Below, piece by piece: positions 8,501 through 11,210 of a stretch of DNA of 64,000 bases (positions are counted from its first letter, which is position 1; each line of letters opens with the position of its first letter). The stretch is from contig NC_049985.1 of assembly GCF_000003815.2 (NCBI RefSeq), forward strand, positions 25,438,962 to 25,502,961, written 5' to 3'. Below the pieces are notes generated by a model. That model saw nothing but the letters and a program-made list of their open reading frames with translations. It searched no databases and was not told the DNA's origin. Both the position numbers and the translations under genes were made by a program. This stretch comes from Branchiostoma floridae (taxonomy: Eukaryota; Chordata; Leptocardii; Amphioxiformes; Branchiostomatidae).

Positions 8501-11210
8501 TCAATCTATTTATAATATTTTCAATCTTTCGATTTGACGATCCCAAAATACCCTATTTTTTAATACAACGAATATACGTTACCCCAGGGATAAAGGTGAC
8601 CTAACGTTATCGTTTATCCCTGCCAGCCTGTTGTTAACAGTGCTGCTCATAGATGGCAAGTTAGGCATCATGCGTCAGGACTGGCCATCTTGTCTGACCT
8701 GTTACCTTTTCTCCCTACCAGCCTGTTGTTAACAGTGCTGCTCATAGATGGCACTTAGTTAGGCATCATGCGTCAGGACTGGCCATCTTGTCTGACCTGT
8801 TACCTTTTCTCCCTACCAGCCTGGTATTAACAGTGCTGCTCATAGATGGCACTTAGTTAGGCATCATGCGTCAGGACTGGCCATCTTGTCTGACCTGTTA
8901 CCTTTTCTCCCTACCAGCCTGGTATTAACAGTGCTGCTCATAGATGGCACTTAGTTAGGCATCATGCGTCAGGACTGGCCATCTTGTCTGACCTGTTACC
9001 TTTTCTCCCTACCAGCCTGGTATTAACAGTGCTGCTCATAGAGTTAGGCATCATGCGTCAGGACTGGCCATCTTGTCTGACCTGTTACCTTCTCTCCCTA
9101 CCAGCCTGGTATTAACAGTGGTGCTCATAGAGTTAGGCATCATGTGTCAGGACTGGCCATCTTGTCTGACCTGTTACCCTTTATCCCTACCAGCCTGGTA
9201 TTAACAGTGGTGCTCATAGAGTTAGGCATCATGTGTCAGGACTGGCCATCTTGTCTGATCTGTTACCTTTCTCCCTACCAGCCTGGTATTAACAGTGGTG
9301 CTCGTAGATGGCAAGTTAGGCATCGTGCGTCAGGACTGGCACAGGATCGAGATGCTGGAACACGCCAGGTTACGTTACGTGGTGAGTCCGCCTTCCCTGA
9401 CTACTGCGTATCCTCTCTTCCTGCAGTTTGAGAATGGCGGTCTTCATGGTAGATGGCGCCGCTGGAATCGCGTCATGGGATACCGTTGCTATAGAGATGA
9501 TTGAGGAATTTAAGCGGCCGTACGTGGTATGTGTTTCGTCAGATTTTGAAGTGTAATTCACAGTCCGTCAGATGGTCGATAGGGTGGCACCCATCTCCAT
9601 TTTGATACCCCTTGGGCCACACACAACTTGGTGCAATCATTTTGTGATGTAAGTCCACTGGTACATAGTTGTATGTGTTCAACTCCCATACTTTTAACCA
9701 AATACTCAGTGCTAAGCAGAGAAAACAGCATGCACCATTTTTTAAAGTCTTTGATATAAGTTGGTTGGGATCAAAATTTATTTTAGATTGGAGTTAAAAT
9801 CAAACCTGGACCTGGTAACAGATAGACGTCACACACTAATCACGAGCATGCCAAGAGGGTATCAGGCAGTCCACCAGGAAATTTTGTGGCCTTTGGGCCC
9901 AGTCAGGTTTACAGCTACTATGGGCACCAGTGCAAATGTGACCATAGCATATTAACTAAAGGTTAAACCTAAATACAGTCAAGGACCTCTCAAGGGACTG
10001 CTAAAATCTAGTCAATTTAGACAGGTGGTCACAGGACAGGATTTCATGATCATAACTTTAAGATTGTGTCAATGAAAAATTTTATCTATCTAAAATTATT
10101 ACATGTATGTAGAGATGGTCGTCACAGTATTTGCAGTGTTTGAGATGTTTGTGTATTTTTCATAAAGGATCCACAGAGAATGAAACAATGACCAGCTGCA
10201 TGTTATGTTTTCCAGCTGGTGATGACAAAGATAGACAAGGTGTCGCAACATGTCCTCCTCAAGAATGTCCTGGCTGTGAGACAGGTGATCAAGGAGAGAA
10301 CAAAGGCATGTCTTCCTCAGGTGTTCCTGGTCAGGTAAGGGTTGATATCAATTTTGGGCTTCTTAAAGATGATTGAAGGTACCATCCTAAAGTTTCCTAA
10401 ATAGATAAAATACTGTAAATGCAGAAACTTTTGCAGTGGTTTAATGGTCGCATTTTTCGCAGCGGCCGCGCGGCCGCTTCACGGCAAATTTAAAACCACC
10501 GTGAACAATTTTCCATGGCAATAAGAGACTACAGTGCATAGTGCTACCACGAAATTAAAACCACCGCAAAAAGTCAATTTTCCCACTACCGCGAAATTAA
10601 ATCTCTGTGAACTTAAATGCATTTACAGTAATACCTGTAAGAGGTATTAAGGAAGCCCTTTACATCAGGGCACTCCAGCCATCACTAAACAGAGCCGGTA
10701 CGCGGTGGGTGTTATAAACTTCCTGGCACGTTTAACCAAATGCTGACGTCACGTATCCGCAAGATCACGTTAATAAGATCATGTGTTTGTAACTCTCGCG
10801 AGTTTACATTCTGAAGTGATTGGTCGCCAGTATTGATCCTAAAGAAGGCGACAGTGGTCGTTGAAAATTTGATCCATGTATAGCTTTGTGTTGGTAGAAA
10901 GTTTAGCTTTGTACTGTGATAACTACCAACAGATATACAGATGAGCTTCCATGAAAAAATACCTGTCTTGTCCACTTGCACACCGACAGTCAACAATGAG
11001 CTGCTTCATAGTTGTAGAAAAAAGCTTTAATAGACTAAAAGATTCTTGGTCAGTTTTGTAAGGAAATGGTAATACATGTACCAGTGTATGTACGTTTAGA
11101 TAAAAAATGTATTTTTCCCTTTTCTTCTCTCCCCACACAGTGGCATGACTGGAGATGGGGTCCCACTGCTACAGTACTTCTTTGCACAGGTCACTGACTC
11201 CCTCAAGTGA
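2566..11210 (+). CDS. GTPBP8: GTPBP8, mitochondrial EngB/YihA-type GTP-binding protein (7 exon positions)
   Basis: Coding exons: 2566-3120, 3932-4030, 7175-7305, then either 9282-9381 or 9427-9526, then 10216-10334 and 11141-11210 (TGA at 11208). All junctions are GT-AG and join in frame. The GTPase motifs appear in order: P-loop GRSNVGKS (exon 3932), the conserved lysine-proline-glycine-histidine stretch across the 4030/7175 junction, G3 DMPGYG (exon 7175) and G4 TKID (exon 10216). The C-terminal exon ends VTDSLK. The predicted length is about 357 residues, longer than vertebrate GTPBP8 because of a 185-codon first exon. The start ATG at 2566 has an in-frame TGA nine bases upstream. The basic N-terminus lacking the GTPase core fits a mitochondrial presequence. 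The family acts in mitochondrial ribosome assembly; that role is inferred from the family. The large introns hold SINEs, hAT elements and a retroelement gag remnant. Confidence 0.93.
3217..3505. repeat. Inverted repeat, about 45-bp arms, in first GTPBP8 intron
   Basis: tatcagacatcttcctcaga near 3224 pairs with ctctaaggaagatttctgat near 3483. The left outer flank carries the tttcatcaggttggtag phrase shared with 7415-7440. Confidence 0.5.
4143..4656 (+). mobile_element. tRNA-derived SINE, full length, 514 bp
   Basis: The head resembles a tRNA with box B GGTTCGAATCC at about 4193. The body has cccttgggaaaggcactt and gcacgttaaagaaccc words typical of a conserved SINE core. The tail is (AAAT)n. 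Flanked by atcatgg at 4136-4142 and 4657-4663. Begins 112 bases after the P-loop exon of GTPBP8. Confidence 0.8.
5267..5896 (-). pseudogene. Retroelement gag-like ORF with CCHC zinc knuckle, broken (inside GTPBP8 intron)
   Basis: Intronless reading frame starting at the ATG at 5896. It encodes a lysine- and glutamate-rich helical protein with a stretch ADNSEAGW...[10 protein letters not shown] of the kind seen in gag-like ORFs of tyrosine-recombinase (DIRS/Ngaro-type) retroelements; that family link is from memory. A CCHC knuckle, [14 protein letters not shown], lies near 5290-5330. There are two breaks: a 14-base duplication (ggtgagctgaagaa) around 5787-5812 that leads to an in-frame TGA, and a frameshift near 5375 just before the knuckle. 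No reverse transcriptase or recombinase follows, so this is a dead fragment. Confidence 0.6.
7447..8181. repeat. Long palindromic element interrupted by a hAT insertion
   Basis: The left arm from aaagtcttcttcgtttcacaa to about 7590 is the inverted complement of the right arm from about 7690 to 8181, except that the right arm is split by the hAT copy at 7757-8095. Without the insertion the arms are about 150 bases and the loop about 100. The outer flanks carry tttcatcaggttggta, a phrase that also ends sequences near 3155, 30656 and 50425. Each arm carries a CTGATGA...CGAAA motif. Confidence 0.6.
7757..8095. mobile_element. hAT non-autonomous element, 339 bp (family 1)
   Basis: Termini CAGGGGTTTAGCCAGC and GCTGGCTAAAGCCCTG (one-base indel). 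Exact 8-bp duplication ttctgtac at 7749-7756 and 8096-8103. The second copy, inverted, is at 37389-37732. No transposase frame. Confidence 0.85.
8407..8609. mobile_element. Palindromic MITE (GTAACCTATATCCGTTGTA family), 203 bp
   Basis: taacgttagggtacctttat at the left and ggtgacctaacgtta at the right; the next layer, ggggtaacctatatccgttg, pairs with its complement. Immediately upstream of the exon 5a array. Confidence 0.7.
8612..9281 (+). repeat. Tandem array: seven truncated copies of the exon 5a acceptor and 5' half
   Basis: Units begin (first base after each AG) at 8627, 8722, 8820, 8918, 9016, 9105 and 9194; the eighth, at 9282, is the complete exon 5a. Periods are 95, 98, 98, 98, 89, 89 and 88 bases. 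Each unit holds the polypyrimidine acceptor, about 50-60 bases of exon ending at CAGGACTGG, then a spacer running into the next acceptor. Units differ by a small insertion or deletion after the ATAGATGGCA stretch. No unit but the last continues into the second half of the exon or has a good donor, so they look like acceptor decoys. Confidence 0.9.
9282..9381 (+). CDS. GTPBP8: GTPBP8 alternative exon 5a (100 nt)
   Basis: Acceptor ctccctaccag ends at 9281; donor G|GTGAGT begins at 9382. Entered in phase 2 after exon 7175-7305, it encodes 33 residues plus a split Asn codon, including [15 protein letters not shown] and the segment [12 protein letters not shown], and ends in phase 0. It has the same length, phases and VDG..GI...D...IEM.E...YV pattern as exon 5b, so the two are duplicates serving the same position between G3 and G4. 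It is the more diverged of the pair: the family-typical EEF..PYV ending is replaced by EHARLRYV. Its 5' part is copied seven times in the array just upstream. Confidence 0.85.
9427..9526 (+). CDS. GTPBP8: GTPBP8 alternative exon 5b (100 nt), canonical-looking version
   Basis: Acceptor cttcctgcag ends at 9426; donor G|GTATGT begins at 9527. In the same phase as 5a it encodes [16 protein letters not shown] followed by [13 protein letters not shown], very close to the corresponding GTPBP8 segment as I know it from vertebrates. The intron between 5a and 5b would be only 45 nt. If 5a and 5b were both included, this exon would be read in another frame and meet TGA at 9502-9504. If both were skipped, the 7305/10216 junction would read AAC TGG TGA. 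Confidence 0.88.
9575..9770 (-). mobile_element. SINE second family, fragment
   Basis: Reverse complement of the 3' two thirds: ggtggcacccatctcc and tcagtgctaagcagag. In the GTPBP8 intron after exon 5b. Confidence 0.6.
10413..10628. mobile_element. MITE CTGTAAATGCAGAAACT, 216 bp
   Basis: Ends CTGTAAATGCAG and TGCATTTACAG flanked by TA on both sides. Interior accgc and ttaaaaccacc words recur. In a GTPBP8 intron. Other copies: 34795-35000, 38092-38296; fragments near 6130-6220, 13010-13075, 34420-34480 and 57000-57865. Confidence 0.7.

What the first reader, a model, noticed from the sequence alone, without database searches (positions are those of the whole stretch)
9282..9526. Mutually exclusive exon pair in GTPBP8 with an impossible-to-splice 45-nt intron and a double fail-safe
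Exons 5a (9282-9381) and 5b (9427-9526) are both exactly 100 nt, share phase and residue pattern, and encode alternative G3-to-G4 segments of a GTPase. The intervening 45 nt is below the usual size limit for spliceosomal introns, a known way of enforcing exclusivity. Inclusion of both gives TGA at 9502; skipping both gives AAC TGG TGA at the next junction. Exactly one must be used. 5b looks ancestral; 5a has a changed helix (HARLRYV in place of KRPYV). I know of no such isoform switch described for this mitochondrial GTPase.
Basis: partly seen in the sequence, partly recalled or inferred. Interest (0 to 1): 0.88.

Follow-up and report, generated by a model that had tools for sequence, protein, structure and literature searches.

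The report
Alternative exon pair in amphioxus GTPBP8
A mitochondrial ribosome-assembly enzyme gene of what looks like an amphioxus carries two interchangeable versions of one exon, of which only one fits into a working message, and the first version sits at the end of a row of seven broken copies of its own start.

Summary
The gene encodes GTPBP8 (EngB GTPase). Exons 5a (9282-9381) and 5b (9427-9526) are each 100 nt, same phase, open, 45 nt apart. Using both gives TGA 9502; skipping both gives TGA 10220. Both fit EngB equally (145.4 and 144.7 bits; 92.8 without either); 0 of 7,973 random open stretches match 5a. With 49% DNA identity, 5a looks kept as protein. Best reading: a mutually exclusive exon pair, enforced by frame and probably sterically (branch-point-like site 19 nt from the 5a donor). 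"Impossible to splice" is too strong: human introns of 43 and 49 nt are spliced. "5b ancestral" was not shown. A mirror-image array sits on a tubulin-family exon in the same window. Duplicated GTPase exons are already described in amphioxus, so this is a new member of a known kind. No transcript evidence was available.

The parts
3932..4030 (+). GTPBP8 exon 3 (G1 motif GRSNVGKS)
   Evidence: splice sites and frame
7175..7305 (+). GTPBP8 exon 4 (G3 motif DMPGYGY); ends two bases into a codon
8606..9340 (+). tandem array of about 98 bp, 7.8 copies; each unit is a splice acceptor plus the first ~59 nt of exon 5a; the last unit runs into exon 5a
8627..9281 (+). seven decoy units with exon-like starts at 8627, 8722, 8820, 8918, 9016, 9105, 9194; only one GT there scores 2 or more (8660, 3.67; the gene's own donors score 6.6 to 11.9)
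9282..9381 (+). exon 5a, 100 nt, [33 protein letters not shown]
9382..9426 (+). 45-nt GT..AG spacer; branch-point-like CTGAC with A at donor +19, 26 nt before the 3' end of the spacer
9427..9526 (+). exon 5b, 100 nt, [33 protein letters not shown]
10216..10334 (+). exon 6 (G4 motif TKID); TGA at 10220 if 5a and 5b are both skipped
11141..11210 (+). exon 7, C-terminal coding end (stop TGA 11208-11210)

Best explanation
Exons 5a and 5b are an old tandem exon duplication kept as a mutually exclusive pair in a GTPBP8 gene found once in the genome. Each supplies the segment between G3 and G4 (strand beta4, the loop after it, helix alpha3 and the start of beta5; structural names recalled). Shown: homology, intact frames, splice-site matches, frame arithmetic. 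Inferred: choice is made because U2 at the branch point about 19 nt inside the 45-nt spacer (for 5b) and U1 at the 5a donor exclude each other, so exon 4 joins either 5a or 5b and the chosen exon joins exon 6; double inclusion, spacer retention or double skipping would give truncated, probably decayed messages. Inferred: the isoforms differ in the alpha3 surface (net charge +1 for 5a, -2 for 5b), which may tune contact with a partner or with rRNA. The seven upstream acceptor copies are probably a young minisatellite born from the head of 5a; they may compete with the true 5a acceptor, and joining any of them through to the 5a donor breaks the protein.
For: NCBIfam EngB model TIGR03598: 145.4 (5a), 144.7 (5b), 92.8 bits (neither), cut-off 124.45. 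Null tests: 0 of 7,973, 0 of 86, 0 of 2,000. Both halves of 5a contribute: replacing residues 20-33 (outside the array) or 1-19 (inside it) by random open stretches reached 5a's 137.2 in 0 of 3,000 each, best 137.1 and 130.4. Identity 49/100 nt and 14/33 aa; by codon position 16, 20, 13 of 33, lowest at third positions. D9, invariant in 80 of 80 bacterial EngB, and D18 (69 of 80) are kept in both. Donors and acceptors of both exons rank in the top 0.3-2.5% of GT and AG sites of the window (recalled consensus weights). Of 3,096 diverged equal-length open AG..GT pairs in 264 kb, 81 score 30 or more, in 8 clusters; seven are repeats as judged by eye, the eighth is 5a/5b. Whole-genome DNA and protein searches find only this locus (these score only the best candidates). 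Duplicated G-alpha exons are in print for two amphioxus species (PMC5896119) and similar adjacent pairs are in this genome.
Against: No transcript data: use of 5a, or of either exon, is not shown. No second amphioxus species could be compared. Recent loss of 5a use, for instance through the decoy array, is not excluded. 5a lacks the proline before beta5 found in 62 of 80 EngB and scores lower than 5b in the general GTPase model (58.5 against 65.8 bits). Five of seven decoy acceptors (four at 11.19, one at 11.01) score above the 5a acceptor (9.56), two below (8.29, 9.22).
Confidence: 0.8

Rival explanations
1. 5a is a recently retired exon: it was functional until the acceptor array grew, and is now skipped, so all GTPBP8 uses 5b.
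For: Decoy units 8722, 8820 and 8918 are nearly identical (99% over 188 nt in register), so part of the array looks young; five of seven decoy acceptors score above that of 5a; 0 of 7 decoy products joined to the 5a donor keep the G4 motif TKID.
Against: 5a itself has an open frame, a strong donor (top 0.28% of GT sites) and an EngB score equal to that of 5b; damage sits in the decoys (in-frame TAG in three, six bases missing in three), not in 5a.
Confidence: 0.12
2. 5a works as a poison exon: the 45-nt intron is sometimes spliced, 5a+5b messages hit TGA 9502 and decay, tuning the GTPBP8 level.
For: Both-inclusion gives TGA 9502; introns of 43 and 49 nt are spliced in humans (PMC8363638, passage).
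Against: A poison exon need not keep GTPase residues over its whole length; 5a does. Donor to branch-point-like site is 19 nt, far below the ~50 nt threshold (PMC6692369; PMC7969005; passages).
Confidence: 0.05
3. Chance resemblance or assembly artefact: 5a is not a real exon copy.
For: It lies at the end of a tandem array, where assemblies can err.
Against: Null tests and pair control; the part of 5a from about 9341 on lies outside the array and adds to the EngB score.
Confidence: 0.02

Closest known systems
Cephalochordate preGNAI exon 6 and preGNAQ exon 5 duplicates (PMC5896119; passages, and section 41)
   Same: P-loop GTPase; single-exon duplication in B. floridae and B. belcheri, described there as mutually exclusive exons. 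In this genome, adjacent G-alpha matches to the same profile stretch read as G3 through beta4, overlapping the beta4 part of GTPBP8 exon 5.
   Different: The G-alpha exons start at or before G3 (DVGGQ) and the matches lie 372 to 1,047 nt apart (coordinates), not 45 nt; signalling proteins, not a mitochondrial ribosome factor; no array of exon-edge units in the two stretches fetched (only one 12-bp, 2.1-copy repeat). That these pairs are the published ones is my inference.
OGDH exons 4a/4b and alpha-tropomyosin (steric-type mutually exclusive exons; PMC7969005, and PMC6692369; passages)
   Same: Donor-to-branch-point distance below the ~50-nt steric threshold; OGDH is also mitochondrial.
   Different: In OGDH the branch points (25-41 nt from the donor in human) are distant from the 3' splice site of a 118-131 nt intron in birds and mammals; here the whole intron is 45 nt.
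Human GTPBP8 (PMC11229512, and PMC11112121: passages; PMC10654211: abstract and outline)
   Same: Same family, a factor of mitoribosome large-subunit assembly.
   Different: The words 'isoform' and 'splice' do not occur in the main text of PMC11112121, nor 'isoform' and 'splice variant' in PMC11229512.

Membership tests
EngB/YihA/GTPBP8 GTPase | Score over the curated cut-off of the EngB equivalog model | tested here: met
   TIGR03598 145.4 (5a) and 144.7 (5b) bits, cut-off 124.45
EngB/YihA/GTPBP8 GTPase | G1, G3 and G4 motifs | tested here: met
   [19 protein letters not shown] in the spliced product; motif names recalled
Mutually exclusive exon pair | Adjacent, homologous, similar length, same phase | tested here: met
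Mutually exclusive exon pair | Both or neither gives no full-length product | tested here: met
   TGA 9502 and TGA 10220
Mutually exclusive exon pair | Junction reads for each exon alone | not testable with these tools
   no RNA data in the collections at hand
Steric-exclusion subtype | Donor to branch point under about 50 nt | tested here: met
   the whole intron is 45 nt; CTGAC with A at +19; the branch point itself is inferred
Steric-exclusion subtype | The intervening intron is not spliced | not testable with these tools
   needs RNA reads or a minigene

The most novel reading that the evidence does not exclude
The acceptor array is a splicing rheostat: the number of decoy acceptor units upstream of 5a, likely variable between individuals, sets how often exon 4 reaches the true 5a acceptor and hence the 5a/5b ratio of a mitoribosome assembly GTPase. 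The mirror-image array of donors on a tubulin-family exon in the same window would make exon-edge minisatellites a recurring source of such variation in this genome.
Probability: 0.12. Interest if true: 0.7.

Novelty: new member of a known kind. Interest (0 to 1): 0.42.

Why it matters
If both isoforms are made, a core mitoribosome assembly GTPase, usually thought of as a housekeeping enzyme, has a switchable beta4-alpha3 surface in an amphioxus. Together with the published G-alpha duplications (PMC5896119) it would suggest that this lineage repeatedly diversified GTPases by exon duplication. The decoy array offers a natural test of how many competing acceptors an exon tolerates.

Tried and rejected
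Retrocopy evidence for either isoform: own-genome DNA and protein searches gave only this locus, so no processed copy could show which exon is used. More exon-5 copies: an exon-5 profile (built from EngB rows plus 5a and 5b themselves) over all frames of the window finds 5b, 5a and, weakly, decoy unit 8627 (E 0.005); nothing else below E 1. Competing RNA structure: the four inverted-repeat pairs of 14 nt or more in 7306-10215 all lie in intron 4, at 7439-8609; not pursued. A relative in viral contigs: 23 stretches matched a pattern, none encodes a relative. Minimum intron size in amphioxus: one paper search (91 papers, 20 listed), none opened. Precedent for acceptor arrays: one search gave one listing, not read.
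Full report
Check of the finding. The window lies in a 25.95-Mb contig of a 513.4-Mb genome. On the + strand it carries GTPBP8: exon 3 (3932-4030), exon 4 (7175-7305), 5a (9282-9381), 5b (9427-9526), exon 6 (10216-10334) and exon 7 from 11141, with AG before and GT after the internal ones; an upstream exon ends at 3120. With either 5a or 5b the frame runs 172 codons from exon 3 to TGA 11208-11210. 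Both together stop at TGA 9502, with or without the 45 nt; neither stops at TGA 10220.

Is it more than chance? The NCBIfam EngB model gives 145.4 bits with 5a, 144.7 with 5b and 92.8 with neither, against a cut-off of 124.45. The general GTPase model PF01926 gives 58.5 and 65.8. The best solved relative, an EngB (3pqc), scores 81.7 bits with 5a and 84.4 with 5b. One scan of bacterial and archaeal genomes gave 169 relatives, of which the tool kept 80; all 80 went into a profile. There 5a scores 137.2, 5b 135.8 and the form without exon 5 99.0. The best of 7,973 sampled open 33-codon stretches (of 26,587) reached 128.5, the best of 86 with AG and GT at the same phase and length 124.0, the best of 2,000 shuffles of 5a 127.9. 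The relatives were found with the 5b form, which favours 5b and not 5a, so the result for 5a is conservative.

Constraint on 5a. The exons share 49 of 100 nucleotides and 14 of 33 residues; matches by codon position are 16, 20 and 13 of 33, the pattern expected when protein is conserved. The aspartate at position 9 (80 of 80 EngB) and that at 18 (69 of 80) are kept in both. 5a keeps the common leucine at 25 (70 of 80), which 5b lacks; 5b keeps the proline at 31 (62 of 80), which 5a lacks. So EngB does not tell which exon is ancestral, and no animal GTPBP8 was available to decide. Replacing residues 20-33 of 5a by random open stretches lowers the mean score to 125.5 and replacing residues 1-19 to 115.7; 0 of 3,000 reach 137.2 in each case, though the best tail comes close (137.1).

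Control for tandem exon look-alikes. In 264 kb (window plus 200 kb of flanks, 20,225 N) I tested 3,096 open equal-length AG..GT pairs with at most 65% DNA identity. 81 score 30 or more, in 8 clusters; seven are satellite, simple or internally repeated sequence as judged by eye, some with higher scores, and the eighth is 5a/5b at 57. Pairs above 65% identity were dropped there; without that filter the best rows printed were all from one satellite.

Splicing signals. With recalled consensus weights, the 5a donor is in the top 0.28% of 3,943 GT sites of the window and the 5b donor in the top 2.5%; the 5a and 5b acceptors are in the top 1.1% and 0.7% of 3,790 AG sites. The 45-nt spacer has one branch-point-like CTGAC, with A at donor +19 and 26 nt before its end; the last AG before the 5b acceptor is the one in the donor GTGAGT itself. 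A donor-to-branch-point distance near 50 nt is described as the minimum for efficient splicing (PMC6692369, passage), and OGDH exons 4a/4b are kept exclusive by branch points 25-41 nt from the donor (PMC7969005, passages). But human introns of 43 and 49 nt are spliced (PMC8363638, passage), so 'impossible' is too strong; the reading frame alone already protects the protein.

5a is the last unit of a tandem array (8606-9340, 7.8 copies of about 98 bp). Seven upstream units start like exons at 8627, 8722, 8820, 8918, 9016, 9105 and 9194, each with an acceptor and the first ~59 nt of 5a, then intron. Four of the seven acceptors score 11.19 and one 11.01, against 9.56 for the 5a acceptor; the other two score 8.29 and 9.22. 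One GT in the array scores 2 or more (8660, 3.67). If a decoy acceptor were joined through to the 5a donor, six of seven products stop early and the seventh is frame-shifted; 0 of 7 keep the G4 motif TKID. Against 5a, three units (8722, 8820, 8918) have three extra bases that make an in-frame TAG, three (9016, 9105, 9194) lack six bases across the aspartate-9 region, and unit 8627 keeps the length and frame of the head. The array most likely grew out of 5a, since the second half of 5a lies outside it and still adds to the EngB score.

The array may be mutational rather than regulatory. In the same window, on the - strand, a tubulin-family exon (47289 down to 47169; PF00091 31.6 bits, just under the cut-off of 33; alpha and gamma tubulins in the PDB, best E 1e-5) has its tail and an apparent GC donor (CAG|GCAAGT) six times in all: at 47169 and in five further copies ending at 47060, 46951, 46842, 46739 and 46624. 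Two exon-edge minisatellites in 64 kb suggest a mutational habit of this genome; whether either affects splicing is open.

Single copy. DNA and protein searches of the whole genome give only this locus for the GTPBP8 exons (only the best candidates are scored there). The EngB family search also gives other places, none over the cut-off (20 matches). No retrocopy was found that could reveal splice choice.

Comparison with what is known. In cephalochordates, exon 6 of preGNAI and exon 5 of preGNAQ were duplicated independently and are described as mutually exclusive (PMC5896119, section 41 read). In this genome a G-alpha profile search shows adjacent matches to the same stretch on C5 (twice) and C3; reading one C5 pair and the C3 pair gives segments from G3 (DVGGQ) through beta4, overlapping the beta4 part of GTPBP8 exon 5. 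One of the two C3 copies is partial and lies beside a run of N. So the event is a new member of a known kind: mutually exclusive exons of the frame-enforced and probably steric sort, in a GTPase, in a lineage known for such duplications. Searches for GTPBP8 with 'mutually exclusive' (5 papers), with 'alternative splicing' (10 papers), with amphioxus terms (the 10 listed of 1,219 hold no GTPBP8) and for amphioxus with 'mutually exclusive exons' (8 papers) showed no such isoform in titles or abstract starts; of the papers these four searches listed, only PMC5896119 and PMC11112121 were opened.

Mechanism, with status. Shown: two intact alternatives that both fit the family, and frame exclusivity. 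Inferred: steric exclusion at the 45-nt spacer; an altered alpha3 surface (net charge +1 against -2) with possible effect on ribosome or partner contact; decoy competition. Not shown: that either message is made.

Noticed in passing
46606-47289, - strand: Tubulin-family exon whose tail and apparent GC-type donor (CAG|GCAAGT) occur six times in tandem, the true edge and five copies into the intron: the mirror image of the GTPBP8 acceptor array.
   Followed up: partly
7439-8185 and 8407-8609: Inverted-repeat elements (90-nt arms 93% complementary with further pairs inside; 53-nt arms 87%) in GTPBP8 intron 4; the second ends just before the acceptor array.
   Followed up: no
L126 and L127 (G000 C5 and C3): Adjacent duplicated G-alpha exons from G3 through beta4, like the published cephalochordate preGNAQ/preGNAI duplicates; a similar pair lies on the other strand near C5:27.75 Mb.
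   Followed up: partly
L111, about 44.7 to 42.1 kb upstream of the window (G000:C7): Satellite with a ~376-bp period; the copies compared are 99-100% alike.
   Followed up: no
33522-33823: 54-bp array (5.6 copies, 96% matches), open through the array in several frames (18-residue unit); possibly coding.
   Followed up: no
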